Assembly: GCA_001777015.1 (NCBI GenBank)
Contig: MFCV01000039.1
Span: forward strand, 1-53,632
DNA length: 53,632 bases
Source: Candidatus Daviesbacteria bacterium RIFCSPHIGHO2_02_FULL_36_13
GTDB taxonomy: Bacteria > Patescibacteriota > Microgenomatia > Daviesbacterales > UBA10151
Direction of reading: 5' to 3'
Of this stretch, positions 12,862 to 49,004 are shown in pieces (the first letter of the stretch is position 1; the number at the start of each line of letters is the position of its first letter). The position numbers were made by a program, and so were the translations under genes. Below the pieces are notes generated by a model that did no database searches, had not been told where the DNA came from, and saw only the letters and a program-made list of their open reading frames with translations.

Positions 12862-12890
12862 TTGACTTATCCGATAGTTTGGAGTATTGT
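12862..12890 (+). promoter_or_regulatory. putative promoter TTGACT-N17-TATTGT for the giant surface protein
   Basis: TTGACT 12862-12867 (the ORF track's TTG start), TATTGT 12885-12890, GTG 12898. Confidence 0.55.
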
Positions 12891-12897
12891 GCAAGTT

Positions 12898-19217: not shown

Positions 19218-20549
19218 ATGGCATCACACGTTGCAGGAGCAAAAAAAGTTTTTGATTTAATAAGAGAAGAAGAAAAAAGACAGAAAGAAGTTTTGGAAAT
19301 GATCCCTTCTGAAAATTACGCGTCTGCGAATGTGATGAGGGCTACGGGATCTGTTTTGACTAATAAATATTCAGAAGGTTATCCTCACAAAAGATATTAT
19401 CAGGGTAACTCTGTTGCTGATAAGGTAGAAGATTATGCTCAGGAGTTAGTTAAAAAATTATTTGATGTTCCTCATGTTAATGTCCAACCTTATTCTGGTT
19501 CTCCTGCAAATGCAGCTGTCTATTTAGCCTTAATGGAACCTTTTAAGGATAAGGTAATGGGGTTAACTTTATCTTTTGGAGGACATCTAACTCATGGTTC
19601 ACCAGTCTCTTTTTCTGGAAAATATTTTCCAGTTGTTTCCTATCCTGTAGGAGAAGATGGATATTTAGATTATGACGCTATTGAAAAAATGGCTGTTAAA
19701 GAAAAACCAAAATTAATTATTTGTGGATTTACAGCTTATTCCAGAATTATAGATTTCAAAAGATTTGGGGAAATTGCTGATAAAGCAGGAGCATATCTTT
19801 TAGCAGATATCTCACACATCACAGGCCTTGTGGTAGCAGGTGTTCATCCATCGCCAGTTCCTTATGTACATATTATTATGACAACAACTCACAAAACTTT
19901 AAGAGGACCAAGAGGAGCAATGTTAATGGTGACTGAAAAAGGTATCAAAAAAGACCCTGAGTTAGCTGAAAAAATAGATAAAGCTGTTTTTCCAGGTCTT
20001 CAGGGTGGACCGCATGATAATACAACTGCAGCAATAGCTGTGGCTTTAGAGGAGGCTTCAACTCCAGCATTTAAAAAATATGGGGCTCAAATTGTTAAAA
20101 ATTCAAAAGCACTTGCAAAACAATTAATAAAAAATGGTTTTGATTTAGTATCAGGAGGAACTGATAATCATCTAATATTAATTGATCTTCAAAATAAAAA
20201 TGTAAATGGGGCAGCAGCTGCATTGGCTTTAGAAGTAGCAGGAATAGTTACAAATAAAAATGCAGTGCCCAAAGATCCAATGCCACCTTTTTATCCTTCA
20301 GGTATTCGTCTTGGTACACCAGCTCTTACCACCAGGGGAATGAAAGAAAAAGATATGGTTAAAGTTGCAAATTGGATAAAGGAAGTAGTTTTGGAAGTAA
20401 GTGGGCAACAAATGCCAAGGGACAAAGAACAAAGGTCAGAGTTTTGGAAAAAGTTTAGAAAAGAAGTTGTTAAAAATAAAAAACTGCTTGCTATCGCAAA
20501 GGAAATTAAAGTCTTTGCTGGAAAATTCCCCGTGCCTGGTATACAATAA
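19218..20549 (+). CDS. glyA: serine hydroxymethyltransferase
   Basis: MIPSENYASANVMRATGS...YPHKRYYQG...TTTHKTLRGPRGAM PLP-lysine motif. Confidence 0.95.
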   Translation: MASHVAGAKKVFDLIREEEKRQKEVLEMIPSENYASANVMRATGSVLTNKYSEGYPHKRYYQGNSVADKVEDYAQELVKKLFDVPHVNVQPYSGSPANAAVYLALMEPFKDKVMGLTLSFGGHLTHGSPVSFSGKYFPVVSYPVGEDGYLDYDAIEKMAVKEKPKLIICGFTAYSRIIDFKRFGEIADKAGAYLLADISHITGLVVAGVHPSPVPYVHIIMTTTHKTLRGPRGAMLMVTEKGIKKDPELAEKIDKAVFPGLQGGPHDNTTAAIAVALEEASTPAFKKYGAQIVKNSKALAKQLIKNGFDLVSGGTDNHLILIDLQNKNVNGAAAALALEVAGIVTNKNAVPKDPMPPFYPSGIRLGTPALTTRGMKEKDMVKVANWIKEVVLEVSGQQMPRDKEQRSEFWKKFRKEVVKNKKLLAIAKEIKVFAGKFPVPGIQ

Positions 20550-20552
20550 GTT

Positions 20553-21395
20553 ATGGCCAAAGTTTCTGGTAAAGAAGTTGCAGAAGCAATTCTTTCTAAA
20601 TTAGAAAAAGAAATCAAAGAAAAAAACTTAAAACCTGGTTTAGCCATTATCCTTGCTGGTAATGATCCTTCTTCCAGGATTTATGTTAGAAATAAAATTA
20701 AGGCTGCTGATAGGGTTGGTGTTAAAGCTAACCTTTATGAATTTAAAGAAGAGGAATTAGATAAGTGCATAGAGCTTCTAAAGGGGTTAAATAAGGATTC
20801 AAATGTCCATGGTGTTATCATTCAGCATCCAGTTTATACCTCCTGGAATTATGATGAATTATTAAGCCACCTTGATCCTCAAAAAGATGTAGATGGATTC
20901 TTGGAGAACTCTCCTTATAGTGGAGCTACAGCTATAGCTGTCTGGGAGATGCTGACAGCCTTTTCTTTTCTTGAAGGATTTAAAACAACAGAAAGTTTTC
21001 TGAAGGAGAAAAAAATTGCAGTTTTAGGAAGAGGAAGAGCAGCTGGCGGTCCCATAATTAAACTTCTAGAGGAAAAAGGATTTTATCCGGAGGTTATTGT
21101 GAGAGATACAGAAAATCCTGCTTTAAAAATTAAAAAGGCAGACATTGTAATTGGAGCAACAGGTGCTAAAAATATTCTTAATAAATCAAACATAAAAAAA
21201 GGGGCATATGTGGTAGGGGTTGGGTTAGGTAAGGAAATTATTGAAGGAAAGGAAAGGATATATGGGGATATTAATGAGGAGGAAGTTTCAAAAATAGCTA
21301 AATTTTATAATCCTAACCTTGGAGGCATAGGGCCTTTAACAATTGTTTCATTGCTTGAAAATGTGTTAAAATCAGCACAGAAAGCGAGTGAATAA
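20553..21395 (+). CDS. folD: FolD-family bifunctional methylenetetrahydrofolate dehydrogenase/cyclohydrolase (divergent)
   Basis: LAIILAGNDPSSRIYVRNKIKAA, DPQKDVDGF, IGATGAKN, GGIGPLTI; QLPLP and PCTPxG motifs altered. Confidence 0.85.
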   Translation: MAKVSGKEVAEAILSKLEKEIKEKNLKPGLAIILAGNDPSSRIYVRNKIKAADRVGVKANLYEFKEEELDKCIELLKGLNKDSNVHGVIIQHPVYTSWNYDELLSHLDPQKDVDGFLENSPYSGATAIAVWEMLTAFSFLEGFKTTESFLKEKKIAVLGRGRAAGGPIIKLLEEKGFYPEVIVRDTENPALKIKKADIVIGATGAKNILNKSNIKKGAYVVGVGLGKEIIEGKERIYGDINEEEVSKIAKFYNPNLGGIGPLTIVSLLENVLKSAQKASE

Positions 21396-28691: not shown

Positions 28692-30092
28692 ATGGGAACC
28701 GAAATTAAAGAAAAGTGCGGAATATTCGGTGTATACGGGAAAGACTTTCAGGCAGCCCGCTTAGTTCATCCAGGCCTTTGGGCACTTCAACACAGAGGTC
28801 AAGAATCTTCAGGAATTGCATCATCAGACGGTAAAAAGATTTATATTCACAAAGGTATGGGGTTAGTTGCTGCTGTTTTTGCAGAAGAAGATTTAAAAAA
28901 GCTAAAAGGATATTTGGCAATTGGTCACAACCGTTATTCAACATCAGGTGATTCTAAACTTGAACATGCCCAACCCGTTATAGAAAGACTTAAAAACGGA
29001 GAGTTAATTGCTGTGGCTCACAATGGTACTTTACCATCCACAAAAAAAATAGAAGAATTTTTAAAACAAAGAAAGATAAATATTTCTGGTGCAAACGATT
29101 CGGAGATGATTGCTAAAGCCGTAGGGATTTTTATGTCTGAAGGTAACTCTTTAGAGCAAGCAGTTAGAAAAGCATATCCGTTGTTTACTGGAGTGTTTTG
29201 TCTTCTTTTAATGGACAAAAGTAAAATTGTTGCAGTTAGGGATAGTTTTGGGATAAGACCTCTTAGTTTGGGTAGATTAAACGGGGGATTTGTAGTTGCG
29301 TCAGAAACTTGTGCGTTAGATATTATAGGGGCTGAATTTATTAGAGATATAAAGCCTGGCGAAATGGTAGTACTTCATGAAAAGGGTATTAAGAGTTTTC
29401 AACTTGAGAAGGGTCAAGAAAGATTGGATGTTTTTGAATTTGTTTACTTTGCAAGACCGGATAGTATCTTAATGGGTAGAAGTGTTGATCAAGTAAGACA
29501 AGATATGGGGGTGCAGCTTGCTAAAGAATTTAAGTTGAAGGCAGATGTTGTAGTACCGATACCTGATTCAGGAATTCCTGCTGCCTTAGGTTTTTCTAGA
29601 GAGTCAGGAATACCCTTTTATCCAGGGCTTATCAAAAATCGTTACATTCACAGAACATTCATTATGCCGGAACAACACGCTAGAAATCAGGGAGTAAAAT
29701 TAAAACTTAATCCATTAAAACATATTATAGAAGGAAAAATTGTCATACTGATTGATGATTCAATAGTTAGAGGAACTACATCGAAACAAATTATTGATAT
29801 GATAAAGTCTGCTGGAGCTAAAAAAATATACTTTTTAATTGCATCTCCTCCTTATAAATATCCGGACTTTTATGGAGTTGATACCCCAAAACAAACAGAT
29901 TTAATTGCAGCTAGAATGAGTGTTAAAGAAATCGAGAAGGAAATAGGTGTTGATTCATTGCACTATCTTTCTTATGCAGGACTCTTAAAGGCTATTGGAA
30001 TCTCTGAGGATTTACTTTGTACGTCATGTTTTACAGGGAATTATCCAGTTGATATTGGTGAAAGGGTAAAAGAAATTAAAAGAATTGATTAA
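28692..30092 (+). CDS. purF: amidophosphoribosyltransferase
   Basis: KCGIFGVYG Ntn Cys after short propeptide; PIPDSGIPAALGFS; VILIDDSIVRGTTSKQII; C-terminal LCTSCFTGNYP. Confidence 0.95.
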   Translation: MGTEIKEKCGIFGVYGKDFQAARLVHPGLWALQHRGQESSGIASSDGKKIYIHKGMGLVAAVFAEEDLKKLKGYLAIGHNRYSTSGDSKLEHAQPVIERLKNGELIAVAHNGTLPSTKKIEEFLKQRKINISGANDSEMIAKAVGIFMSEGNSLEQAVRKAYPLFTGVFCLLLMDKSKIVAVRDSFGIRPLSLGRLNGGFVVASETCALDIIGAEFIRDIKPGEMVVLHEKGIKSFQLEKGQERLDVFEFVYFARPDSILMGRSVDQVRQDMGVQLAKEFKLKADVVVPIPDSGIPAALGFSRESGIPFYPGLIKNRYIHRTFIMPEQHARNQGVKLKLNPLKHIIEGKIVILIDDSIVRGTTSKQIIDMIKSAGAKKIYFLIASPPYKYPDFYGVDTPKQTDLIAARMSVKEIEKEIGVDSLHYLSYAGLLKAIGISEDLLCTSCFTGNYPVDIGERVKEIKRID

Positions 30093-30095
30093 TTT

Positions 30096-30698
30096 ATGAA
30101 GAGGATTGCGGTACTAATTTCTAATAAAGGAACAGGTACTAACTTACAAGCAATCATTGACGGGGTAAAATCAGGAAAAATTCAAGCAGAAATAGTAGCT
30201 GTTATTTCAGATACAATTGATGCTTTGGGTTTAAGAAGAGCAAAAGAATTTAATATTCCAATTAAAATAGTTCCCGAAAAAGAAAATTTATTAAAAGTTC
30301 TAAAAGAAATAAATCCAGACTATATTTGTTTAGCTGGTTGGAAACAAATCATTTTGGATGAAGTAATAGATGCTTTTCCAAACAAAATTCTAAACACTCA
30401 TCCTGGTTTAATTCCTGACACAATGAATGGCATTGTTAAAAATCCTGATGGAACAAATGCAGTATGGAATAAAGGGAAGATGACTGCTAAAGCAATGCAG
30501 AATTTCCTGGATAGTAATGCAACATACGCCGGATGTACTAATCATTTTCTTTCTCAAGAGTTTGATTTTGGTCCAATACTTGGAAGATGCTTTGAAAAAA
30601 TTGAAGGAGGAGATACTGTTGAATCTTTATACCAAAGACTTAAGGTTAAAGAAAACCAACTATATGTTGATGTTTTAGAAAGGCTTTGTAATGAGTAA
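30096..30698 (+). CDS. purN: phosphoribosylglycinamide formyltransferase (divergent)
   Basis: VLISNKGTGTNLQAIID, NTHPGLIP, DFGPIL. Confidence 0.85.
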   Translation: MKRIAVLISNKGTGTNLQAIIDGVKSGKIQAEIVAVISDTIDALGLRRAKEFNIPIKIVPEKENLLKVLKEINPDYICLAGWKQIILDEVIDAFPNKILNTHPGLIPDTMNGIVKNPDGTNAVWNKGKMTAKAMQNFLDSNATYAGCTNHFLSQEFDFGPILGRCFEKIEGGDTVESLYQRLKVKENQLYVDVLERLCNE

Positions 30699-32001
30699 TT
30701 TGAAAACCGTGTTAGTAATTGATGGAGGAGGAAGGGGTGCTGTTTTAGTTGATAAATATGGGCAGTCTCAATCAGTTGGAAGAATTCTAGTTGTGCCAGG
30801 AAATGATTTAATGGCGATTAATACAAGCAAAGATGTTATTACATACCCTAATTTAAAAACAACATCAATCAAGGAAATTTTAGAAATCGTAGAAAAAGAA
30901 GATGTTAATTTAGTAGATGTTGCACAAGATAATGCAGTAGAAGCAGGGTTAGTAAATGAATTAGAAAAATTAGGGATTGCAGTTATTGGCCCAACTAAAG
31001 AGGCCGGGCAAATAGAATGGGATAAAGCCTGGGCCAGAAATTTTATGAAAAAATACGGGATTCCTTCTCCGGAATATCATGTTTTTAATTCTGAAGAGGC
31101 GGGATTAGATTTTATTAAAAAGAACCCTGGGAAAAAATGGTTTATAAAAGCAGCAGGACTTGCTGAAGGAAAAGGAGTAATTCCTGCTGAAAATTTTAAT
31201 AAAGCAATTAAGGCAATAAAAGAAATGAGTAAATTTGGAAAGGCCGGTGAAACCTACCTCTTGGAAGAATGGTTAGAAGGGGAGGAGTTTTCTGCATTTG
31301 CTCTTTGTGACGGAGGAAGCTTTAAATTAGTAGGATGTGCTCAGGATCATAAAAGAGTTAATGACGGTGATAAGGGTTTAAATACGGGAGGAATGGGTTG
31401 TGTTTCCAATCCAAAAGTTGTCACAAAATATATTACTTCTCAGATTAATCAAATCTTCAAAAAAACAATTGAAGGATTGAACAATGAAAGAAGACCCTAT
31501 AAAGGAATTTTATATTTAGGAGGAATGGTTCTAGATAAAAAAGTTTCTGTTATTGAATTTAATGCCAGATGGGGAGATCCCGAAGCGCAAGTTATTTTGC
31601 CATCGATCCAAAATGATATCTATAAAGTTAGTATGGCAATTGTTTCAGAGAGTTTAAAGCAGCTAAAAATTAGAATTGATGAAAACACCAGAGTTGTTGT
31701 AGCGGGTACTTCAAAAGGTTATCCAGGTGATTATTCTAAGGTAAAAGGGAAAAAAGTTTTTGGAATAAGTGAAGTTCAAAAGATTGAAGGAATAAAGATT
31801 TATGGAGCTGGGATCAAAAAAAGTGAAAAAAATTGGGTAGTAAACGGAGGCAGAGTCTTATACATAGCAGGAGAAGGAAAAAATATTATTGATGCAAGAA
31901 AAAAAGCTTACGGGGCAATGGCATTAATTAGTATCGAAGGAAATAACTTACACTATAGATCTGACATAGGATTTCGGGATTTAGAAAGACTTCGAAAATG
32001 A
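30691..32001 (+). CDS. purD: phosphoribosylamine-glycine ligase
   Basis: ATP-grasp; WDKAWARNFMKKYGIPSP, KAAGLAEGKGV, EFNARWGDPEAQVILP. Confidence 0.93.
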   Translation: MSNLKTVLVIDGGGRGAVLVDKYGQSQSVGRILVVPGNDLMAINTSKDVITYPNLKTTSIKEILEIVEKEDVNLVDVAQDNAVEAGLVNELEKLGIAVIGPTKEAGQIEWDKAWARNFMKKYGIPSPEYHVFNSEEAGLDFIKKNPGKKWFIKAAGLAEGKGVIPAENFNKAIKAIKEMSKFGKAGETYLLEEWLEGEEFSAFALCDGGSFKLVGCAQDHKRVNDGDKGLNTGGMGCVSNPKVVTKYITSQINQIFKKTIEGLNNERRPYKGILYLGGMVLDKKVSVIEFNARWGDPEAQVILPSIQNDIYKVSMAIVSESLKQLKIRIDENTRVVVAGTSKGYPGDYSKVKGKKVFGISEVQKIEGIKIYGAGIKKSEKNWVVNGGRVLYIAGEGKNIIDARKKAYGAMALISIEGNNLHYRSDIGFRDLERLRK

Positions 32002-34682
32002 TACACAAAGTGAGGGTGGCACCAAGAAATTCAAAAATTGAAAAAAGAGATGCTTTTAAAAAAGTAAAAGTCTATAGATTAGAAGGAATTAGTTTGGAGG
32101 ATACAAAAATACTGGCAGAAAAAGTTTTATCAGAAGAATTAACTCAAATTTGCTCCATTGATAAGCAACTTGTTAAAGAAAAAGTGATAGAAGTTGCCTA
32201 CAAACCAGGAGTTATGAATCCTGAGGTTTCCTCAATAATGAAAGCTGCTTCCGATTTAGGAATTAAATTGCTTGCTGCTGACTCATCATATGAGTATGTT
32301 TTACCTATTAATCAGCATAATTTGTATAACCCTTTGACTGAATATATTATGGAGGAAGAACCAGAAACATTGGTGATCAAAGGAGTTCCAGGAAAAACTG
32401 AAATTGTTCCTCTTAGAAAAATGAATGAAGAGGAGTTATTGGAAATTTCAAAAGATAAACTATTTCTAAACAAAGATGAAATGAAAGTTATTCAAAATTA
32501 TTTTGAGGATTTAAAAAGAGATCCAACTGATTTAGAACTGGAAACTTTAGCACAAACCTGGAGTGAACATTGTGCACACAAAACTTTTAAGGCAAAAATA
32601 ATTTTAGATGGAAAGGAAAAGGAACCACTGTTTAAAAGATTAAAAGATGAAGCTTTAAAACATGACAAAAATATTGTTTCAGCATTTGTGGATAATGCTG
32701 GAGTGATGGATTTTTATGATGGATGGGCCATTAATGGAAAAGCTGAAACTCACAATGCTCCATCTGCAATTGAACCATATGGTGGAGCTATGACAGGGAG
32801 TGGTGGAGTTTTTAGAGATGTTGTAGCAACTGGCCAGGGAGCTAAAGCTGTTGTTTCAACAGATATATTCTGTCTTGCTGATCCTAATATGGATAAAGCT
32901 AAATTACCAGAAGGAACACTTCCACCGGACTATATCTTAAAAAGAGTTGTTGCAGCTGTACGGGATTACGGAAACAGAATTGGAATTCCAACCAATAATG
33001 GATCATTTCACTTTCATGATGATTTTAGAGCCAAGCCAATTGTTTTAGTTGGGGCATATGGAATTTTGCCTAAAGATAAAGCTCAAAAGGGAGAGCCAAG
33101 AATTGGTGATATAGCAGTTGTGATTGGAGGAAAAACAGGAAGAGATGGAATTCACGGAGCTACTTTTTCTTCGGGAGAAATGAGTGATAGAACAATTTCT
33201 GTTAATGCCACAGCAGTGCAAATTGGCAATGCTATTGAAGAAAAAATAACTTTTGATGCCATACTTGAAGCCCGTGATAAAAATTTAATAACAGCTGTGC
33301 AAGATCTAGGCGCTGGTGGATTTTCCTCAGCTATAGGTGAGATGGGAGAAATAACAGGAGTAACTGTGCATCTAGAAAAAGCGCCTTTAAAATATCAAGG
33401 CCTTTCTCCTTGGGAGATTTGGGTGTCAGAATCACAAGAGCGGATGTTAATAATTTTATCTCCAAACAATTTAAATGATTTTTTAAAAATTTGTAAAAAA
33501 TATAATGTTGAGGCTACAGAAATTGCTAAGTTTGATGGAACTAAAAGACTACAAGTTTTTTATGGAAAAGAAAAAGTAGGAGATTTGGACATGAAATTTC
33601 TATATGGAGGACTTCCTCAAAGAGTAATGAAGGCAATTTCTCCTCGTCATTCTGAACGAAGTGAAGAATATAATTTATATCCTTCGGCTATGCCTCAGGA
33701 TGACAATGGATGGATAAAGCTTTTGGAGAAAACATTATCATCTGGAGATGTAAATTCCAAGGAATCGATACTTAGATTATATGATCATAATGTTCAGGGA
33801 ACTAGTGCCTTGCCCCCATTTGTAGGAGTTGATATGGATGGACCAACAGATGCTGCAGTTATAAAACCCTTGCTTGATAAGCCTTATGGTTTAATTGTTT
33901 CTCATGGATTAAGTCCAAAGAAAACCTTAGAGGATTCCTATGAAGGAACTATTTGGTCTGCTACTGAGGCCATCAGTAATTATGCGGCAGTTGGGGGAGA
34001 TTATAAAGAAGCTTGCCTAATAAATAATTACATTTGGCCTTTCCCAGATCCACAGTGGCTTGGAAAATTAGATTCCTGTGTAGACGGCGTGGTTGATTTT
34101 ATGAAAGCTTTGAAAATCCCAGTTATTTCTGGAAAGGATAGTTTGTCTGCAACATACAGGTCTTCAGACGGAATTGTTTTACATAGTCCTCCAACGCTTG
34201 CTATGTCTGTTTTTGGAAAAATACCTGATGTTAAAAAAACAGTTTCTTCTGATTTTAAAAAAGTCGGGTCAGTTATTGTATTGGTAGGTAAGCAGGATAT
34301 ACGAGTTGATCTTAAGGTTTTACCGAAAGTGTTAGAGGCAATGTATAAGGCAATAAACACAGGAAAAGTTTTAGCCTCTCATGATATTTCAGAAGGGGGA
34401 CTTGTAACTGCTATTTTTGAGATGTGTGTTGGAGGAAATTGCGGAGCCTTTATAAAAGTAGAAAGTGGTGAATTACTTTTAGAAACTGCTGGATGTTTTA
34501 TTGTTGAAGTAGAAAATGAAGAAACTGCTAATGAATTATTTAAAGGAATACCTTACAAGATTTTGGGTACTACTACAAAAGATGAGAAGTTATCAGTTGA
34601 GGGATTATTCAGTGCAGATATGAAGCAATTACAAGAAGCATGGAGTAAACCAATGAAGGAGATATTCGGATGGAACAGGTGA
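31998..34682 (+). CDS. purL: phosphoribosylformylglycinamidine synthase, PurS-PurL fusion
   Basis: ~100-aa PurS-like N-terminus; LAQTWSEHCAHKTFKAKI, NGKAETHNAPSAIEPYGGAMTGSGGVFRD, HDISEGGLVTA. Confidence 0.9.
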   Translation: MIHKVRVAPRNSKIEKRDAFKKVKVYRLEGISLEDTKILAEKVLSEELTQICSIDKQLVKEKVIEVAYKPGVMNPEVSSIMKAASDLGIKLLAADSSYEYVLPINQHNLYNPLTEYIMEEEPETLVIKGVPGKTEIVPLRKMNEEELLEISKDKLFLNKDEMKVIQNYFEDLKRDPTDLELETLAQTWSEHCAHKTFKAKIILDGKEKEPLFKRLKDEALKHDKNIVSAFVDNAGVMDFYDGWAINGKAETHNAPSAIEPYGGAMTGSGGVFRDVVATGQGAKAVVSTDIFCLADPNMDKAKLPEGTLPPDYILKRVVAAVRDYGNRIGIPTNNGSFHFHDDFRAKPIVLVGAYGILPKDKAQKGEPRIGDIAVVIGGKTGRDGIHGATFSSGEMSDRTISVNATAVQIGNAIEEKITFDAILEARDKNLITAVQDLGAGGFSSAIGEMGEITGVTVHLEKAPLKYQGLSPWEIWVSESQERMLIILSPNNLNDFLKICKKYNVEATEIAKFDGTKRLQVFYGKEKVGDLDMKFLYGGLPQRVMKAISPRHSERSEEYNLYPSAMPQDDNGWIKLLEKTLSSGDVNSKESILRLYDHNVQGTSALPPFVGVDMDGPTDAAVIKPLLDKPYGLIVSHGLSPKKTLEDSYEGTIWSATEAISNYAAVGGDYKEACLINNYIWPFPDPQWLGKLDSCVDGVVDFMKALKIPVISGKDSLSATYRSSDGIVLHSPPTLAMSVFGKIPDVKKTVSSDFKKVGSVIVLVGKQDIRVDLKVLPKVLEAMYKAINTGKVLASHDISEGGLVTAIFEMCVGGNCGAFIKVESGELLLETAGCFIVEVENEETANELFKGIPYKILGTTTKDEKLSVEGLFSADMKQLQEAWSKPMKEIFGWNR
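33645..33705 (+). repeat. ~61-bp palindromic repeat inserted in-frame in purL
   Basis: cgtcattctgaacgaagtgaagaat ... atccttcggctatgcctcaggatgaca; inverted ends GTCATTCTGA / TCAGGATGAC. Confidence 0.7.
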
Positions 34683-35458
34683 AAGTTTGTATCCTACAAT
34701 CTGATGGGACTAATTGTGATAATGAACTCTTTTATGCATTTAAGAAAGTTGGGGGAAGTCCTGAGTTTGTACATGTTAATGAACTTAGAGACAAATCCAG
34801 AAGTTTGAAAGATTTTGATATCCTGGCTTTACCTGGAGGGTTTTCTTATGGAGATGATATTGCATCTGGAAAAATTTTAGCAATTGAACTTATTAGTTTT
34901 CTAAAAGCTGAGATAGAAAAATTTAAGAGTGGAGGAGGATTAATTATTGGGATTTGCAATGGATTTCAAACTCTTGTTAGGACAGGCCTTTTACCTTTCG
35001 GAAATTTAGGAAAAATGGATGCAACTTTAGATAATAATGACAGCGGGCATTTTGAATGTAGATGGATAGATCTAAAATCTGAAAAAAGTAAATGTGTATT
35101 TTTAAAAAATTCTTATAAAGGACATTTTGCAGTTAATCATGGAGAAGGAAAATTCTTTTCGCAACCTTCGGTTATTAAAAAAATTGAGGATCAAAATTTA
35201 GTAGTTTTTAGATATGTAGATGAGTCTGGAAATCCCACTCAAGAATATCCTGAAAATCCCAATGGATCTATAAATGCTATAGCTGGAGTAACAGATCCAA
35301 CAGGAAGAATATTGGGAATGATGCCACACCCGGAAAAATTTGTTGACAGCACTCAATATCCAAACTGGAGAAGAGAGACCCTTCGACAAGCTCAGGACAA
35401 GCCTCATGGGCTTTTTATCTTTGAAGATATGGTAAATTATGTTAAGGAGGATAAATGA
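34670..35458 (+). CDS. purQ: phosphoribosylformylglycinamidine synthase glutaminase subunit
   Basis: LALPGGFSYGDDIASGKI, GICNGFQTLVRTGLLP, GMMPHPEK. Confidence 0.93.
   Translation: MEQVKVCILQSDGTNCDNELFYAFKKVGGSPEFVHVNELRDKSRSLKDFDILALPGGFSYGDDIASGKILAIELISFLKAEIEKFKSGGGLIIGICNGFQTLVRTGLLPFGNLGKMDATLDNNDSGHFECRWIDLKSEKSKCVFLKNSYKGHFAVNHGEGKFFSQPSVIKKIEDQNLVVFRYVDESGNPTQEYPENPNGSINAIAGVTDPTGRILGMMPHPEKFVDSTQYPNWRRETLRQAQDKPHGLFIFEDMVNYVKEDK
35379..35401 (+). repeat. 23-bp repeat inside purQ, same family as 574-596
   Basis: CCCTTCGACAAGCTCAGGACAAG vs CCCTTCGACAGGCTCAGGGCAAG: two differences. Confidence 0.8.
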
Positions 35459-38540: not shown

Positions 38541-40335
<1,795 letters not shown>

Positions 40336-40354
40336 TAATTTAATATAATGAATT

Positions 40355-41371
40355 ATGGGATACTTGAAAAACACAATTGTAACGCTTGGATCTCACTCTG
40401 CCCTGCAAATCCTCAAAGGGGCAAAAGATGAGGGTTTTAAAACTTTAGTTGTTTGTACTCCTGATAGAGAAAGACTTTATTCTTCATACACAAATTTTAT
40501 TGATGAAATTATAATAATAAATAAGTGGTCTGATTTTCCAAAATTAGAAAAACAACTCCTTAAAAAAGACTGCATAATTATTCCCCATGGATCCTTTGTG
40601 GCATATCTTGGGATGGATGAAAATAAGAAAATGAAGGTTCCATATTTTGGTAACAAAAAAGTTTTAGATTGGGAAGAAAACAGGAAAATGCAAAGGGAAT
40701 GGATGGAAAAATCAGGCATTAAAGTTCCCAGGAGATTTAAAAAGGGAGATAAGATAGATAGGTCAGTTATTGTTAAGTCCTACGGAGCTGCTGGAGGAAA
40801 AGGATATTTTACTGCCAGAAATCAAAAAGAATTAGACGCAAAATTAAAAACTTTTTCCGAGGAGCGGTTTATGGTTCAGGAATATGTTATTGGAGTTCCT
40901 GTTTATTTTCATTTCTTTTATTCACCTTTAACTAAAAAGGTAGAACTTATGAGTGTTGATAAAAGATATGAAACAAATGTTGATTCTTTGGGTAGAATCC
41001 CTGCTAAAAATCAAAGAGGATTAAATATAGAGCCGTCATTTGAGGTTGTTGCCAATATTCCAATGGCTGTAAGGGAATCAATGATCGCAGTGGCAGTGGA
41101 GATGGCAGAAAGGGTTGTTAAAACTTCACAAAAGCTAATAGATTCTAAAGGGCTTTTTGGGCCATTTTGTTTAGAAACTATTATTACCTCTACTGAAGAG
41201 ATTTATGTGATAGAAATTTCTGCCAGGATTGTGGCAGGAACAAACTTTTTTATTAATGGTTCACCCTATACATATCTACTTTATGATGAACCAATGTCTA
41301 CTGGCAGAAGAATTGCCAGAGAGATTAAAGATGCAATTTCTAAAAATAAACTTAAGGAGGTATTGGATTAA
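40355..41371 (+). CDS. purP: formate-dependent AICAR formyltransferase PurP (archaeal-type ATP-grasp), copy 1
   Basis: TLGSHSALQILKGAKDEGFKTLVVC, IIPHGSFVAYLG, VIVKSYGAAGGKGYF, ISARIVAGTNFFINGSPYTYLL. Confidence 0.85.
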   Translation: MGYLKNTIVTLGSHSALQILKGAKDEGFKTLVVCTPDRERLYSSYTNFIDEIIIINKWSDFPKLEKQLLKKDCIIIPHGSFVAYLGMDENKKMKVPYFGNKKVLDWEENRKMQREWMEKSGIKVPRRFKKGDKIDRSVIVKSYGAAGGKGYFTARNQKELDAKLKTFSEERFMVQEYVIGVPVYFHFFYSPLTKKVELMSVDKRYETNVDSLGRIPAKNQRGLNIEPSFEVVANIPMAVRESMIAVAVEMAERVVKTSQKLIDSKGLFGPFCLETIITSTEEIYVIEISARIVAGTNFFINGSPYTYLLYDEPMSTGRRIAREIKDAISKNKLKEVLD

Positions 41372-41372
41372 A

Positions 41373-42455
41373 ATGAAAAACTACACCATTGCAGTTCTAG
41401 GTTCTCACTCAGCCTTAGATGTATGCCGCGGTGCCAAAGATCTTGGTTTCAAGACTTTGGTTATTTGTAAAAAAGGAAGAGAAAAAACTTATAAAGATTA
41501 TTATGCATCAAACGGGGAAATGGGTTGCGTTGATGAAGTAATAGTACTGGATGATTTCAAAGAGATTTTAAGTGAAAAGATTCAAAAAGAACTTCTAAAA
41601 AGAAATTCCATATTCATTCCTCACAGATCATTCGAAGTTTACATTAATGATTATAATGCCATTGAAAATAAATTTAAGGTTCCTATGTTTGGCAATAAGT
41701 TTTTATTAAGATTTGAAGAAAGAGATGAAAAACCAAACCAATATGATTTATTGGCAAAGGCTGGAATTAAGACACCAAAGACTTTTAAAAATCCAAAAGA
41801 TATAGACAGGTTAGTTATTGTAAAAGTTTTAGAAAAGGAAAGAGGATTTGAGAGAGCATTCTTTTTTGCAGAATCTTACGGCGAGTATGAGATTGGGGTA
41901 AAGCATGGATTGGGTGTTGGCAAATTTACAGAGCAGCAAATTGAATCAGCTGTTATTGAAGAGTTTATTGTTGGAGTACAAGCTAATTTTAATTTCTTTT
42001 ATTCCCCGATGAATAAAAGATTAGAATTAATTGGTACTGATACAAGGAGACAGACTAATATTGAAGGCTTAACTAAATTGCCATCCATTTATGAAGAAGA
42101 AGTTATGAAAAAAATCGGAGTTAAATATGAGGAGGCAGGACATATTGCTGTAACAGTTTTGGAATCTCTTCTGGAGGATGCTTTTGATATGGGCGAAAAA
42201 TTTGTAGAAGCATGTGAGAAATTAAGAGTTCCAGTCATAGGCCCGTTTGGTTTACAAACTGTTATTACAGCAGGTCCTCCAAAGAAAGAGATAATTGTAT
42301 TTGATGTTTCACCTCGAATGCCAGGATCTCCCGGAATTTTCTCAACACCATATTCTGGATATTTATATGGACAAAATATTTCTATGGGAAAAAGAGTGGT
42401 TATGGAAATTAAAGAAGCTATTGAGAAAAATCAGTTAGGAAAGGTTTTAACCTAA
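41373..42455 (+). CDS. PurP paralogue, copy 2 (divergent)
   Basis: VLGSHSALDVCRGAKDLGFKTLVIC, FIPHRSFEVYI, VSPRMPGSPGIFSTPYSGYLYG; ATG 41373 with GGAGG upstream. Confidence 0.8.
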   Translation: MKNYTIAVLGSHSALDVCRGAKDLGFKTLVICKKGREKTYKDYYASNGEMGCVDEVIVLDDFKEILSEKIQKELLKRNSIFIPHRSFEVYINDYNAIENKFKVPMFGNKFLLRFEERDEKPNQYDLLAKAGIKTPKTFKNPKDIDRLVIVKVLEKERGFERAFFFAESYGEYEIGVKHGLGVGKFTEQQIESAVIEEFIVGVQANFNFFYSPMNKRLELIGTDTRRQTNIEGLTKLPSIYEEEVMKKIGVKYEEAGHIAVTVLESLLEDAFDMGEKFVEACEKLRVPVIGPFGLQTVITAGPPKKEIIVFDVSPRMPGSPGIFSTPYSGYLYGQNISMGKRVVMEIKEAIEKNQLGKVLT

Positions 42456-42456
42456 G

Positions 42457-43989
42457 ATGAGTAACCGATATGCTCTTCTGTCAGTTTATGATAAAACAGG
42501 CATTTCGGATTTTGCAAAAACCCTAGTCAAAAATGGCTTTAAAATTATTTCCACAGGTGGAACATTTGAAGAACTGAAGAAAAATGGAATTGATGTAACT
42601 CCCATAGAAGAAGTAACCGGAAATCCAAGAGATTCATTTGATGGCAGAATGAAAACCATCAGTTTTCAAATAGAATCAGGAATTTTATTTGATAGAAAAA
42701 ATAAATCCCATGTTAATCAGGCAGAAAAATTAAACATTCCCCAAATTGATGTGGTGGTTTGCAATCTTTATCCATTTGAGGAAAAGCCGGGAGTTGAAAC
42801 AATTGATGTTGGTGGACCGACCATGATTAGGTCTGCTGCCAAAAATCACGAAAGTGTTTTGGTGGTGGTGGATCCTGAAGATTATAAAAAAATTGGGAAG
42901 TTGATGGAAGATGGAAAATTGGATGGGACTTTAAGAAAAGAATTGGCTGGAAAAGCCTTTTATCATCTGTCACTGTATGATTCCTTAATTGGAAATTATT
43001 TTTCAGATGATAGATTTCCAAAAGAGTTGACTGTTCCTATCAGAAAAGTCAGTGACTTAAGATATGGAGAAAATCCACACCAAAAAGGATCATTTTATAT
43101 AATGCCCAAAACAAATTCACCACTTTCTAGATTAAAAAAACTTTGGGGAAGAGACTTATCCGGGACAAATATTGGAGATATTTATTCAGGGCTAGAAACT
43201 GTCAGACAATTTAAAGAACCCTCCGCAGCTGTTATAAAACATTTAAGCCCTTGTGGAATTGCTATTGGAAAAAATGCACAGGAAGCTTTGGATAGAGCTA
43301 TTAAGGCAGATCCGGTTTCTGCATTCGGGGGCGTCATTGTTTTAAACAGGGAAATGGATTTGGCTACTGCCAAGATTGTGGCGGCTTTTAAGGAGGAAAG
43401 CGAAAGCAACATAGATATTGTGGCAGTACCTTCTGTTAGTGACGACGCTTTAGACCTTTTAAAGAAAACCAGAAAAAGTATGGGTGTTTATACATTTAAT
43501 GAAATTCCAGAAAATAGATCTGAAAATTGGGACCTAAAATATTTTGCAGGTGGAATATTATTGCAGGATTTTGATGACAATATTGAGGAAAGCTATAAGG
43601 ATTGGAAAGTGGTGACAAAAGTTAAGCCTAATAAAAAACAATTAGAACAAATGAAATTTGGAATAAAGTGTGTCAAGAGTGTTAAATCAAATTCAGTATT
43701 GGTTGTAGATAAAGAAATTCCAATGACCCGCGGAATTGGATCTGGTCAAACATCAAGAGTTGGGGCTACAAAAATTGCTTTAGAGCAGGCAGGAGAATTT
43801 AATAATAGTGGAATTTTAATTTCTGATAGTTTTTTCCCTTTTGATGACAGTGTAAATTTAGCTGCACATTATGGCATAGCCGCCATTTTAGAGCAGGGTG
43901 GATCTGTTAACGATAAACTTTCAATTAAGGCCGCAGACAAAGCAGGTATTGCTATGGTATTCTCAGGAAGGAGATCATTTAGACATTAA
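42457..43989 (+). CDS. purH: bifunctional AICAR transformylase/IMP cyclohydrolase
   Basis: STGGTFEELKKNGIDVTPIEEVTG, DVGGPTMIRSAAKNH, RYGENPHQKG, KHLSPCGIAIG, SDSFFPFDD. Confidence 0.95.
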   Translation: MSNRYALLSVYDKTGISDFAKTLVKNGFKIISTGGTFEELKKNGIDVTPIEEVTGNPRDSFDGRMKTISFQIESGILFDRKNKSHVNQAEKLNIPQIDVVVCNLYPFEEKPGVETIDVGGPTMIRSAAKNHESVLVVVDPEDYKKIGKLMEDGKLDGTLRKELAGKAFYHLSLYDSLIGNYFSDDRFPKELTVPIRKVSDLRYGENPHQKGSFYIMPKTNSPLSRLKKLWGRDLSGTNIGDIYSGLETVRQFKEPSAAVIKHLSPCGIAIGKNAQEALDRAIKADPVSAFGGVIVLNREMDLATAKIVAAFKEESESNIDIVAVPSVSDDALDLLKKTRKSMGVYTFNEIPENRSENWDLKYFAGGILLQDFDDNIEESYKDWKVVTKVKPNKKQLEQMKFGIKCVKSVKSNSVLVVDKEIPMTRGIGSGQTSRVGATKIALEQAGEFNNSGILISDSFFPFDDSVNLAAHYGIAAILEQGGSVNDKLSIKAADKAGIAMVFSGRRSFRH

Positions 43990-43992
43990 TAT

Positions 43993-45384
43993 ATGAAAGA
44001 CTATTCAAGATATACAAGCCCTTTTTCTTGGAGATATGGATCTGATGAAATGAGAACCATATTCTCAGAGGAAAATAAATATAAGCTTTGGAGAAAAATC
44101 TGGGTGGAGTTGGCATCTGCTCAGCATAAGCAAGGCTTAGTTTCTAAAGAAGAATTGTCTGATTTAGAAAAACATCAAGAAAACCTTGATATAGAAAGAA
44201 TTTGGGAAATTGAAAAAGATACCAGACACGATGTTGTTGCCGCTATTAAGGAATTTGCAGAAAAAGCAAAAATTGGGGGAGGAAAAATTCATCTGGGAGC
44301 AACCTCCATGGACATTAATGATAATGCAGAAACAATCAGAATTTCTGAAGCCCTTAGTTTGGTGGAAAAAGAGCTAGTTAATTTACTGAAAACCTTTGGT
44401 AAACAGATTGAAAAATATTCGGACTTTACTTGTATGGGTTATACTCATCTTCAAACAGCAGAGCCCACAACTTTAGGATATAGATTTAGCTTTACTGCCC
44501 AGGATTTATTAATGGATTTGGAACAATTGGAATTTGTTAAAAAGAATTTAAAAGCTAAGGGTATGAAAGGTGCAGTTGGAACATCTGCTTCGTATGTAAA
44601 ACTTTTGGATGCTCAGGGTGCTGAAGAAATGGAAAAGATAGTAATGGATAGTTTGGGAATTCAGGCAATTGATATTGCCAATCAAACATACCCAAGAAAA
44701 ATTGATTTATTAGTTTCTAATCTTCTTTCTTCTATTGCGCAAAGTTTAAATAAATTTGCTTTTGATTTAAGAATAATGCAGTCAACAAATTTTGGAGAGT
44801 GGCAGGAGCCATTCGGTAGTCTTCAGGTTGGTTCCTCCGCCATGCCCTTTAAGAAAAATCCAATCAAGAGTGAACAGATTTGTTCACTTTCCAGACTGGT
44901 TGTAAATTTAGGAAGAACTTCTTGGGATAATGCATCCAATATGTTGCTTGAAAGGACTTTGGATGATTCTGCAAATAGAAGAATAGCAATTCCTGAAATG
45001 TTTTTAAGCATAGATGAGATGCTTACCTCTACTAATAATATTGTTGAAGGATTAATTATTAATGAAAAGAGAATTCATAAAAATCTAGAAACATATTTTC
45101 CATTTTCAGCATCCGAAGGAATAATAATTGAGGCAGTCAAAAAAGGTGCTGATAGACAAATGATGCATGAGGTATTACGTGAGATTTCTATGAAAGCTTG
45201 GGAGGCAATACAAGATGGGGAGGGAAATCCCATGGAAGATTTAATAATGAGCAATCAAGAGATTGGTAAATATTTAAGTAGTGAAGAAATACTAAAACTC
45301 ATGGATGCAAAGAATCATACTGGTAGTGCACAAAGTAAAGCTTTGACAATTGCCAAAAAAATTGGTAACTTAAAAAGCCTATAA
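43993..45384 (+). CDS. purB: adenylosuccinate lyase
   Basis: TRHDVVAAIKEF, GYTHLQTAEPTTLG, GSSAMPFKKNPIKSE. Confidence 0.94.
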   Translation: MKDYSRYTSPFSWRYGSDEMRTIFSEENKYKLWRKIWVELASAQHKQGLVSKEELSDLEKHQENLDIERIWEIEKDTRHDVVAAIKEFAEKAKIGGGKIHLGATSMDINDNAETIRISEALSLVEKELVNLLKTFGKQIEKYSDFTCMGYTHLQTAEPTTLGYRFSFTAQDLLMDLEQLEFVKKNLKAKGMKGAVGTSASYVKLLDAQGAEEMEKIVMDSLGIQAIDIANQTYPRKIDLLVSNLLSSIAQSLNKFAFDLRIMQSTNFGEWQEPFGSLQVGSSAMPFKKNPIKSEQICSLSRLVVNLGRTSWDNASNMLLERTLDDSANRRIAIPEMFLSIDEMLTSTNNIVEGLIINEKRIHKNLETYFPFSASEGIIIEAVKKGADRQMMHEVLREISMKAWEAIQDGEGNPMEDLIMSNQEIGKYLSSEEILKLMDAKNHTGSAQSKALTIAKKIGNLKSL

Positions 45385-45414: not shown

Positions 45415-45930
45415 ATGAAAAAAGTCGTCATCATCTCTGCATCAGATTCAGAACTAGAAATAATGAATGAGGTAAGGAAAATATTGGATGAGTTTGGAGT
45501 AGAAAGTGAAATAACAATTTCTTCTGCACACAGATCACCTGAAAGAACAAAAGAAATTGTAGTAGATGCACAAACTAGTGGAGTAAAAGTAATAATTTGT
45601 GGGGCAGGACTTGCTGCACATTTAGCAGGAGTGGTAGCGGCTCACTTTCCTTTGCCTGTTATTGGAATTCCTTTGGGAGGCGGACCTCTTAAAGGTCAGG
45701 ATGCTCTGTTGGCAACACTTCAAATGCCATCAGGTATTCCTGTGGCAACAGTAGGGATAGATAATGCCAAAAATGCCGGACTTTTAGCTGTGCAGATTTT
45801 AGCAACCTCAGATCCCGCTTTAGAGAAAAAAATGGTAGATTATAAAAATAAACTTTCAATTAGTATAGAAGAAAAAGCTGCAAAGCTTCAAGAATTAGGG
45901 GTTGAAGGGTATCTGTCCAGCAAGAAATGA
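45415..45930 (+). CDS. purE: 5-(carboxyamino)imidazole ribonucleotide mutase
   Basis: SSAHRSPERTKE, GAGLAAHLAGVVAAHFPLPVIGIP, LQMPSGIPVATVGI. Confidence 0.93.
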   Translation: MKKVVIISASDSELEIMNEVRKILDEFGVESEITISSAHRSPERTKEIVVDAQTSGVKVIICGAGLAAHLAGVVAAHFPLPVIGIPLGGGPLKGQDALLATLQMPSGIPVATVGIDNAKNAGLLAVQILATSDPALEKKMVDYKNKLSISIEEKAAKLQELGVEGYLSSKK

Positions 45931-46901: not shown

Positions 46902-47903
46902 ATGCCTAACAATAACGGATTTGTATTATTAACAGGTACAGCAAATTTAAAACTTGCTCAGGATGTTGCTAAGATTTTAGGAAAAGATGTAGGTGAGACT
47001 GTTTCTGTTTTTGCAGATGGCGAAAAGAGAGTTATCATCCCTGAAAATCTTCGAAAAAGAGATGTATTTATAATTCAACCTACTTGTCCTCCGGTTGATT
47101 CCAGTATTATAGAATTATTTTTAATAATTGATGCAGCAAAGCGATCTTCAGCTTCAGAGGTTACTGCAATAATTCCTTACTTTGGATATTCAAGGCAAGA
47201 TAGAAAAGATAGACCCCGAGTGCCTATTTCATCTTCAATTATTGCCAGACTCATTGAATACTCAGGGGCTGACAGAATTTTAACCATTGATATACACTCA
47301 GAACAGGAACCAGGATTTGTAGAGATTCCTTGGGATAATTTATATGGCAGTTATTCACTTCTGCCGGAATTGCAGAAGCATTTTAAATCATCCAATTTAG
47401 TTATAGCCTCACCTGATAAAGGTGGAGTTCCAAAAGCTACTTTTTATGCAGAACTTTTAGACGCAGAAGGTATTGCCACAGTTTTTAAAGAGAGAGATAT
47501 GGATAAAAATAATGAGAGTGAAGCCTTGGACATGATTGGAGATGTTAAAGGTAAGGATGTTTTGATCGTTGACGATATGATCGATACAGCAGGTACACTT
47601 TGTAATGCAGCAAACCTTATTAAAGAGCGTGGGGCAAAAAGCATAAGTGCTGCTTCCACTCATGGATTATTTTCAGGACCTGCCCCAAAAAGAATTGAAG
47701 AGTCGCCAATAGAGAAGATTTTTATAACTGATTCAGTGCCCTTACGAGAAGAAATGAAAAATAGCAAAAAACTTATAGTTACATCGATTGCAAAACTTCT
47801 AGCAGAGGCTATAGAGTGTATTTATGATGGGTCATCCATGAGTGAGAAACTTATTCCTAAGGCACATCAAACACATGATGATAGAGATTTAGCGGAGGTC
47901 TAA
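46902..47903 (+). CDS. prs: ribose-phosphate pyrophosphokinase
   Basis: FADGEKRVIIPENLRKRDVFIIQP, YFGYSRQDRKD, DVLIVDDMIDTAGTL. Confidence 0.94.
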   Translation: MPNNNGFVLLTGTANLKLAQDVAKILGKDVGETVSVFADGEKRVIIPENLRKRDVFIIQPTCPPVDSSIIELFLIIDAAKRSSASEVTAIIPYFGYSRQDRKDRPRVPISSSIIARLIEYSGADRILTIDIHSEQEPGFVEIPWDNLYGSYSLLPELQKHFKSSNLVIASPDKGGVPKATFYAELLDAEGIATVFKERDMDKNNESEALDMIGDVKGKDVLIVDDMIDTAGTLCNAANLIKERGAKSISAASTHGLFSGPAPKRIEESPIEKIFITDSVPLREEMKNSKKLIVTSIAKLLAEAIECIYDGSSMSEKLIPKAHQTHDDRDLAEV

Positions 47904-49004
47904 AGAACTTCCTTCAAAGGTAATATCTTTTTGTTTTAGTACAACTTTTCTTTCACCAGCTTCAAGAAATCCTGCATCTAAACTTTCAAACCCATTTGTC
48001 TTTATAATTTCTTGGGCTTTTGCAATATCTGAAGGGGACACAAAAATAGCATAATCCTGTCCCATGTTATAAGTTTCATACATTTCTTTTTCAGCAAGAC
48101 CGGCGTTTTCTTGGATAAAATTAAAAACTTCTTGTGGCTCAAATAGTTCTTCTATGACATAAATGAAATCTCGATTAGATCTCATGATTTTTCTAAGTCC
48201 ATGACCAGTAATGTTTGAGATATAGTGGATATCAACATTCCCATCCAATAAACCCTGAATTAATTTTGCATAAATATTTGTTTTAGTTAAGATTGCCTCT
48301 CCATACAGAGTGCCATCTTTAAGTTTTGTACCATAACCCTGCTCTAATTTTTCTGCCACAGCTCTTGTTAGAGAAATGCCATTAGCATTTACACCGTTAC
48401 TTTTTAAAAGTAGAATTCTGTCCCCGACAATTAATTTTTTATCCGTTATTAACCTTTTGTCGTTTGTAATAATTCCTACAGCGGATCCTGCTAAATCCAC
48501 TGTATCTTTTTCAATAACTCCTTTATCTGTAGCGGTTTCACCACCTCCCCAGGAACATTCTGCTAAATCACAAGCTGATTTCCACCCTGCAATTAAATCC
48601 TTCATGCGTTCTTCATCCTGCAGCCAACTATTATCTTCAATTGCCCAATAAGCATGTACTACTAGAGGTTTTGCCCCGACTGTTATTAAGTCGTTGATAA
48701 TTGTGGCAACAGTATCGTGACCAATGATGTCATAGTAGGTCTTACCTGTGATTTTTCTTGTATTGTCAGCTACTAAATTTTTAGTTCCTAAACCTTCAAT
48801 AACTGATGCCATAAAAACATCACCTTGTTTCCAAACATATGCAGATTCACCTCTAGTTTCAGATACCTCTATCAAGCCATTTTTGAGATTTTTGGAAGTG
48901 GAAGCGGCTGCAGTTTGAGCTAATTTTTTAATGGGGTCTTTAGTACCGTAATCATCACCAACCTGAGAGTATGTGATCTTTTTCGTAGAACGGTCAGGTT
49001 TCAT
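47889..49004 (-). CDS. purM: AIR synthetase (phosphoribosylformylglycinamidine cyclo-ligase), divergent
   Basis: VIEGLGTKNLVADN, DTVATIINDLITVGAKPL, GGGETATDKGV, YNMGQDYAIFVS. Confidence 0.82.
   Translation of the reverse strand: MKPDRSTKKITYSQVGDDYGTKDPIKKLAQTAAASTSKNLKNGLIEVSETRGESAYVWKQGDVFMASVIEGLGTKNLVADNTRKITGKTYYDIIGHDTVATIINDLITVGAKPLVVHAYWAIEDNSWLQDEERMKDLIAGWKSACDLAECSWGGGETATDKGVIEKDTVDLAGSAVGIITNDKRLITDKKLIVGDRILLLKSNGVNANGISLTRAVAEKLEQGYGTKLKDGTLYGEAILTKTNIYAKLIQGLLDGNVDIHYISNITGHGLRKIMRSNRDFIYVIEELFEPQEVFNFIQENAGLAEKEMYETYNMGQDYAIFVSPSDIAKAQEIIKTNGFESLDAGFLEAGERKVVLKQKDITFEGSSLDLR

What the first reader, a model, noticed from the sequence alone, without database searches (positions are those of the whole stretch)
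40355..43989. Two archaeal-type PurP paralogues in tandem with a full-length bacterial PurH
The sequence shows two adjacent PurP-like ATP-grasp genes directly followed by a 510-aa PurH that keeps the cyclohydrolase and AICAR-transformylase signatures (RYGENPHQ, KHLSPCG). PurP (formate- and ATP-dependent AICAR formylation) is the archaeal solution for the same step as the folate-dependent PurH domain. Having both, with PurP doubled, in a bacterial purine locus suggests either a folate-independent bypass, a condition-dependent switch, or a new function for one PurP. Probable inter-domain transfer is inference.
Basis: partly seen in the sequence, partly recalled or inferred. Interest (0 to 1): 0.8.

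Follow-up and report, generated by a model that had tools for sequence, protein, structure and literature searches.

The report
Archaeal PurP enzyme pair in bacteria
A tiny, CPR-type bacterium carries, beside the normal bacterial enzyme for the last two steps of purine making (PurH), the two-gene enzyme pair that archaea use for the same steps, and relatives that keep the pair but have lost PurH suggest that the pair alone can finish the job, including one step whose archaeal gene has long been missing.

Summary
40355-41371 and 41373-42455 encode two PurP-family proteins, and 42457-43989 a full-length PurH with both sets of catalytic residues. All three are intact and nearly touching in a CPR purine locus. 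The PurPs are not a recent doubling. They are the two ancient archaeal paralogues of Brown et al. 2011: cluster I (N258, GG-loop) and cluster II (H258, no P-loop). These split cleanly in all 252 sequences classified here. In CPR the two are kept or lost together (37 of 38 and 44 of 46 PurP+ genomes hold exactly two). PurH is not tied to them: 12 CPR genomes (91-98% complete, five families of the window's class, one in its own family) keep cluster I+II in purine loci without PurH, stand-alone PurH2 or PurO. I therefore read the pair as an archaeal-type, formate- and ATP-dependent AICAR-to-IMP module, redundant with PurH here and apparently sufficient in relatives. Cluster II then becomes a candidate for the missing IMP cyclohydrolase, or an obligate partner of cluster I; sequence cannot decide. 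The same gene set is known from Methanosarcinales; a 2014 survey called PurP exclusively archaeal, and I found no paper describing it in CPR. Number and direction of transfers are unresolved.

The parts
40355..41371 (+). PurP cluster I (FAICAR synthetase-like ATP-grasp, 338 aa)
   Evidence: Pfam and PDB matches; H27, S94, N258, S266, R314 and the GAAGGKGYF loop; cluster I clade
41373..42455 (+). PurP cluster II (360 aa; H258, ERGFERAFF loop, no P-loop)
   Evidence: Pfam and PDB matches; residues; cluster II clade; AlphaFold pLDDT 88.9, TM 0.87-0.88 to M. jannaschii PurP
42457..43989 (+). PurH, bifunctional AICAR transformylase / IMP cyclohydrolase, 510 aa
   Evidence: catalytic residues
40321..40349 (+). 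promoter-like TTGACT-17-TATAAT, ending 5 nt before the cluster I ATG (would give a nearly leaderless mRNA)
   Evidence: 11 of 12 matches; such sites are no commoner than in shuffles (35 against 40.5)
41354..41360 (+). AAGGAGG Shine-Dalgarno-like site before the cluster II gene
   Evidence: read from sequence
43993..45384 (+). purB
   Evidence: named from the translation; conserved neighbour and homologous family in the relatives
45415..45930 (+). purE
   Evidence: TIGR01162 178 bits
45927..46889 (+). purC
   Evidence: named from the translation; conserved neighbour
46902..47903 (+). prs
   Evidence: named from the translation; conserved neighbour
47889..49004 (-). purM
   Evidence: TIGR00878 183 bits, below its cut-off
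39008..40291 (-). purA (divergent from the purP promoter)
   Evidence: named from the translation; conserved neighbour
28692..30092 (+). purF
   Evidence: TIGR01134 485 bits
30096..30698 (+). purN (10-formyl-THF dependent GAR transformylase, divergent)
   Evidence: PF00551; TIGR00639 126.7 bits, below cut-off 150.1; NTH and DFG motifs
30691..32001 (+). purD
   Evidence: TIGR00877 392 bits
31998..34682 (+). purL (894 aa, N-terminal extension)
34670..35458 (+). purQ
   Evidence: TIGR01737 199 bits
35455..37044 (+). guaA
   Evidence: named from the translation; conserved neighbour
19218..20549 (+). glyA, source of methylene-THF
   Evidence: PF00464 E=5e-156
20553..21395 (+). folD, source of 10-formyl-THF (divergent)
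   Evidence: PF00763 and PF02882

Best explanation
The two PurP genes are one inherited unit: the archaeal cluster I + cluster II pair, which converts AICAR to IMP with formate and ATP. Cluster I is most likely the AICAR-formate ligase (FAICAR synthetase). Cluster II is its constant partner; it most likely either closes FAICAR to IMP or forms a mixed enzyme with cluster I that is needed for activity. In the window's organism the pair runs parallel to a complete folate-dependent PurH, so there are two routes for the same two steps. In related CPR lineages PurH is absent and the pair appears to carry the steps alone. Shown: gene identities, residues, pairing, operon maps, absence of known alternatives. 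Inferred: the catalysis, the division of labour and the redundancy in the living cell.
For: Family, residues and fold. The pair is kept as a pair: 37 of 38 PurP+ genomes of the phylum sample and 44 of 46 of the class sample have exactly two copies (cluster identity checked for those read out). Cluster I and II trees are correlated (r=0.68, Mantel p=0.0005). 12 genomes 91-98% complete, in 5 families, have both PurPs but no PurH, no stand-alone PurH2 (only weak hits of about 15-25 bits, mostly in frames of about 1,050-1,190 aa, the length of carbamoyl-phosphate synthase) and no PurO; the 11 of them whose loci were read out have purine gene clusters around the pair (e.g. G535 purF-N-D-L-Q-P1-P2-B-E-C plus purM). 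No gene family other than purine genes and the PurPs is shared by all 11 PurH-less loci. In CPR loci with PurH its place varies (after P2, between P1 and P2, or elsewhere) while P1-P2 keep theirs. In archaea, 12 of 22 named PurP+ genomes likewise gave neither PurH nor PurO.
Against: Brown 2011 (PMC3261824) reports that P. [quoted passage not shown] Cluster II lacks the glycine-rich ATP loop. Both proteins score below NCBI's equivalog cut-offs. In the window itself PurH is complete, so nothing proves that the pair is used. An unknown cyclohydrolase elsewhere in the PurH-less genomes cannot be excluded; only neighbourhoods were compared.
Confidence: 0.62

Rival explanations
1. Backup formylation: cluster I (with cluster II as a regulatory or structural subunit) only makes FAICAR from formate and ATP, as PurT does beside PurN in E. 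coli; PurH or an unknown enzyme closes the ring.
For: PurH keeps its cyclohydrolase residues. No FTHFS over the cut-off was found in 60 CPR genomes, so PurP could be their way to capture free formate. M. jannaschii works with a single cluster Ia PurP plus PurO (PMC3261824).
Against: 12 CPR genomes have no known cyclohydrolase; cluster II has its own strictly conserved residues (H258, N208, N210, Q230, D310), unlike a decaying or merely structural subunit.
Confidence: 0.3
2. Cluster II (or both) acts on another substrate in or near purine metabolism and not on AICAR or FAICAR.
For: Individual archaeal cluster Ib and II proteins were reported inactive as AICAR formyltransferases (PMC3261824); N258 that contacts the carboxamide of AICAR is His in cluster II.
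Against: Constant purine-operon context in CPR and several archaea; shared formyl-contacting H27 and R314; kept or lost together with cluster I.
Confidence: 0.15
3. Transitional redundancy: PurH does the work in this organism and the PurP pair is on its way out.
For: PurH complete; pair absent from many relatives.
Against: Both PurPs are intact, and pairwise dN is low against high or saturated dS (cluster I dN/dS about 0.05-0.10, cluster II dN 0.13-0.25 with dS saturated); pair present side by side in every read-out PurP+ locus of the family; within the class it is PurH that is missing from PurP+ genomes.
Confidence: 0.08
4. Assembly chimera or contamination by archaeal DNA.
For: Archaeal-type proteins in a bacterial contig.
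Against: Same operon in independent genomes and families; one contig with bacterial housekeeping genes; CPR sequences form their own branches.
Confidence: 0.01

Closest known systems
Archaeal PurP clusters Ib and II (Brown et al. 2011, PMC3261824)
   Same: Same two clusters, same diagnostic residues (N258 against H258; GG-loop against a longer loop), paired occurrence, purine gene neighbourhood, frequent absence of a known IMP cyclohydrolase.
   Different: Here in CPR bacteria, embedded in a bacterial purine operon, with PurH directly downstream in the window's family.
Methanosarcinales gene set (full-length PurH + PurN + two PurPs; PMC3261824)
   Same: Same combination of genes: PurN, complete PurH and cluster I + II PurP.
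   Different: Archaeal hosts; here one bacterial gene cluster.
M. jannaschii PurP MJ0136 (cluster Ia, PDB 2r7k-2r7n)
   Same: Fold (TM 0.87-0.88 for cluster II); formyl contacts H27 and R314 kept.
   Different: Single-copy enzyme with proven activity and PurO as partner; cluster II has H258 and no P-loop, the CPR cluster I has E297 for Q297.
P. furiosus PurP PF1517 (cluster Ib, PDB 2r84-2r87)
   Same: 51% identical to the window's cluster I protein; crystallised with AMP, ATP and AICAR.
   Different: Reported without AICAR formyltransferase activity; Brown et al. list no known IMP cyclohydrolase (PurO or PurH2) for Pyrococcus.
E. coli PurN / PurT pair (general knowledge; also discussed in PMC3261824)
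   Same: A folate-dependent and a formate/ATP-dependent enzyme for one formylation step.
   Different: That is the GAR step; here it is the AICAR step, and the formate route has two genes.

Membership tests
PurP (formate-dependent FAICAR synthetase) | DUF1246 + DUF1297 domains / ATP-grasp PurP fold | tested here: met
   both proteins; cluster II model TM 0.87-0.88 to 2r7m/2r7k
PurP (formate-dependent FAICAR synthetase) | formyl-contacting His27 and Arg314 (M. jannaschii numbering) | tested here: met
   present in both
PurP cluster I | Asn258 and glycine-rich loop | tested here: met
   first protein only; (K/R)GG(K/R)G consensus is AGGKG here
PurP cluster II | His258 and longer loop without the P-loop glycines | tested here: met
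   second protein; 115 cluster II sequences classified
PurP (formate-dependent FAICAR synthetase) | NCBIfam equivalog cut-off | tested here: not met
   398.7 of 580 and 279.2 of 556 bits; homologues, not proven equivalogs
PurP (formate-dependent FAICAR synthetase) | catalysis AICAR + formate + ATP to FAICAR | not testable with these tools
   needs assay
PurH (bifunctional) | full-length with IMPCH and AICARFT catalytic residues | tested here: met
   PRK00881 cut-off passed, TIGR00355 not
IMP cyclohydrolase (proposed role of cluster II) | sequence relation to PurO or PurH2 | tested here: not met
   only PurP-like Pfam and PDB matches; the role is inferred from phyletic pattern alone
IMP cyclohydrolase (proposed role of cluster II) | FAICAR to IMP activity | not testable with these tools
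   needs assay

The most novel reading that the evidence does not exclude
Cluster II PurP is the long-missing IMP cyclohydrolase of archaea that lack PurO and PurH2, and CPR bacteria obtained the complete two-gene AICAR-to-IMP module, which in several bacterial lineages has replaced PurH altogether. This would be a third, unrelated IMP cyclohydrolase family, built on an ATP-grasp fold.
Probability: 0.35. Interest if true: 0.8.

Novelty: new member of a known kind. Interest (0 to 1): 0.56.

Why it matters
The enzyme that closes the purine ring in Crenarchaea and Pyrococcus has been listed as unidentified since at least 2011 and again in 2019 for Crenarchaea (PMC3261824, PMC6797443). Brown et al. 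suggested that a PurP paralogue might do it but called the pattern imperfect. CPR bacteria give an independent, replicated comparison: close relatives with the same purine genes and the same PurP pair, with or without PurH. That makes the question testable by E. coli purH complementation with a bacterial gene pair. It also corrects the statement that PurP is exclusive to Archaea (PMC4177761).

Tried and rejected
Recent duplication of one PurP: rejected, the clusters separate with full support, each holding both CPR and archaeal sequences. Chimeric contig: rejected. PurH transformylase domain decayed because PurP took over: rejected, residues intact in PurP+ and PurP- genomes. Altered KTISF motif in the window's PurH as a sign of relaxed cyclohydrolase: rejected, PurP-less class members G156 and G311 have it too. 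Folate independence as the reason: unlikely, purN is kept in PurH-less operons and glyA/folD are in the window. Separate archaea-to-CPR transfers: not demonstrated, one CPR clade not rejected (p=0.66 for I, 0.147 for II). Weak PurH2 hits in PurH-less genomes: mostly in frames of about 1,050-1,190 aa, read as the MGS domain of carbamoyl-phosphate synthase. Riboswitch or other Rfam element: none.

Full report
What is there. The window holds a purine locus: purF-purN-purD-purL-purQ-guaA (28692-37044), purA on the minus strand (39008-40291), then purP-I (40355-41371), purP-II (41373-42455), purH (42457-43989), purB, purE, purC, prs, and purM on the minus strand. One base separates purP-I from purP-II and purP-II from purH, three separate purH from purB. 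A TTGACT-17-TATAAT sequence ends five bases before the first ATG, although such matches are no commoner than in shuffled sequence. glyA and folD lie at 19218-21395 in the same window. No Rfam element was found. The source is a 0.96-Mb, 96%-complete genome. Handles of its phylum match contigs titled Peregrinibacteria and Gracilibacteria by length (for example G317:C1, 998,424 bases, and PGYE01000001.1), so it is inferred to be a CPR (Patescibacteria) bacterium, of another class than those.

The two PurPs. Both have the two PurP domains. The first is 51% identical to P. furiosus PF1517 in the alignment; the second has M. jannaschii PurP as its closest solved structure and an AlphaFold model of pLDDT 88.9 that superposes on it with TM 0.87-0.88. 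They match the two archaeal clusters described by Brown et al. 2011 (PMC3261824): cluster I with Asn258 and a glycine-rich loop, cluster II with His258 and a loop two residues longer without the glycines. Among 252 sequences besides the M. jannaschii reference (CPR, DPANN, Thermococcales, Brockarchaeota, Bathyarchaeota and others) the split at residue 258 is complete: 137 cluster I, 115 cluster II, with further nearly fixed differences such as Y/N208, H/N210, E/Q230, E/Q297 and E/D310, while H27, E265, S266 and R314 are shared. Cluster II is therefore a differently specialised protein, not a decaying copy. A joint tree separates the clusters with full support.

PurH. All residues that Brown et al. 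list as important for the cyclohydrolase and transformylase halves and that I could place are intact in the window and in nearly all other PurP+ genomes examined. The unusual KTISF motif of the window's PurH is also found in PurP-less class members, so it is a lineage trait.

How common is it? In 380 genomes of the phylum, 38 have PurP, 37 of them exactly two copies (the exception, G234, has one divergent cluster II with H27 replaced by R); 36 of the 38 also have PurH, and another 43 have PurH without PurP. In 233 genomes of the window's class, 46 have PurP and 44 of these have exactly two copies. I and II trees are correlated (r=0.68, Mantel p=0.0005). The pair thus behaves as one unit.

The informative comparison. 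Within the class, 12 PurP+ genomes of 91-98% completeness (families f1, f9, f167, f175, f179) have no PurH. A sensitive PurH2 profile finds only weak matches there, mostly in frames of about 1,050-1,190 aa, the length of carbamoyl-phosphate synthase, while it clearly recovers the split PurH2 of family f5. PurO is absent. The gene maps, read for 11 of the 12, show purine gene clusters: G535 has purF-N-D-L-Q-P1-P2-B-E-C and purM, G545 the same, and family f167 has purA, B, P2, P1, M, D, N, glyA, F, E, C, with purQ/purL where the contig stretch reaches far enough. G496, of the window's own family and 98% complete, has the pair followed directly by purB, with no purH. Where PurH is present its position varies: after P2 (window's nearest relatives), between P1 and P2 (G550), or elsewhere (G515, G524, G590, family f5). 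PurH state changes at least four to five times on the PurP trees of the class. No gene family other than the purine genes and the PurPs is shared by all 11 PurH-less loci. The archaeal side agrees: of 22 named archaeal PurP+ genomes, 12 gave neither PurH nor PurO (completeness of those genomes is not given).

Interpretation. The simplest reading is that cluster I + II together take AICAR to IMP using formate and ATP, and that in the window's organism this module coexists with a full PurH. Cluster I is the likely ligase. Cluster II is either the ring-closing enzyme or an obligate partner. The report that P. furiosus PF1517 and PF0421 showed no AICAR formyltransferase activity (PMC3261824) argues against each acting alone as a formyltransferase and is compatible with an obligate pair; I could not read the primary paper and do not know whether the two were tested together. 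Folate shortage does not explain the pair, since PurN is kept in PurH-less operons and GlyA-FolD are encoded in the window. No FTHFS over the cut-off was found in any of 60 genomes, so PurP might be a formate-capturing enzyme there; that is inference.

What is known. The combination PurN + PurH + two PurPs is described for Methanosarcinales, and the missing cyclohydrolase and the idea that a PurP paralogue might supply it come from Brown et al. 2011; PMC6797443 (2019) still lists the crenarchaeal enzyme as unidentified. PMC4177761 (2014) calls PurP exclusive to Archaea. My searches found no paper on PurP in CPR, but subscription journals and preprints are not held. The proteins belong to a known family and NCBI's models already name them, so I call this a new member of a known kind; the value lies in the PurH-less bacterial relatives.

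Limits. Everything about catalysis is inferred. Genome completeness is below 100%, but a single missing gene inside otherwise well-kept purine clusters in five families is unlikely to be chance. Whether CPR genomes with a purine operon but neither PurP nor PurH exist was not tested. The number and direction of inter-domain transfers are not resolved.

Noticed in passing
L105:8849-10580, L106:9803-11378, L246, L248, L249 (family f5): PurH is split into two genes in this CPR family, transformylase first and cyclohydrolase second, i.e. in inverted order relative to the usual fusion; both halves keep most catalytic residues.
   Followed up: partly
L090:8962-10224 (G234): A lone, divergent cluster II PurP with H27 replaced by R and no cluster I or PurH in the genome: a likely relic or a repurposed protein.
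   Followed up: no
window 31998-34682: PurL is 894 aa with about 150 extra N-terminal residues, and no separate purS was seen; possibly a PurS-PurL fusion.
   Followed up: no
window 20553-21395: FolD keeps YxxxK, Q and DVDGF motifs but appears to lack the usual PCTP motif; FolD scores are also low in several other genomes of the class.
   Followed up: no
window 50120-51031: A class A beta-lactamase-like protein (PF13354, 145 bits) next to the purine locus of a CPR genome, far below the NCBIfam cut-offs.
   Followed up: no
window 12862-19113: A 2083-aa surface protein with bacterial Ig-like and fibronectin III domains.
   Followed up: no
L139, L167: Two contigs titled Nitrospirota/Nitrospirae whose PurP genes resemble those of Gracilibacteria (L139 in the same gene order, genome held about 0.9 Mb): probably misbinned or mislabelled CPR genomes.
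   Followed up: partly
window 40321-40355: A near-consensus sigma-70 promoter ends five bases before the purP-I ATG, which would make the operon's mRNA nearly leaderless.
   Followed up: no
L124:1335-2264, L125:503-1432: Thermococcus carries an extra, very divergent PurP-like gene near the normal one; the L125 genome also has a PurO match, like the thiC-purC-purO-purP cluster described in PMC6797443.
   Followed up: no
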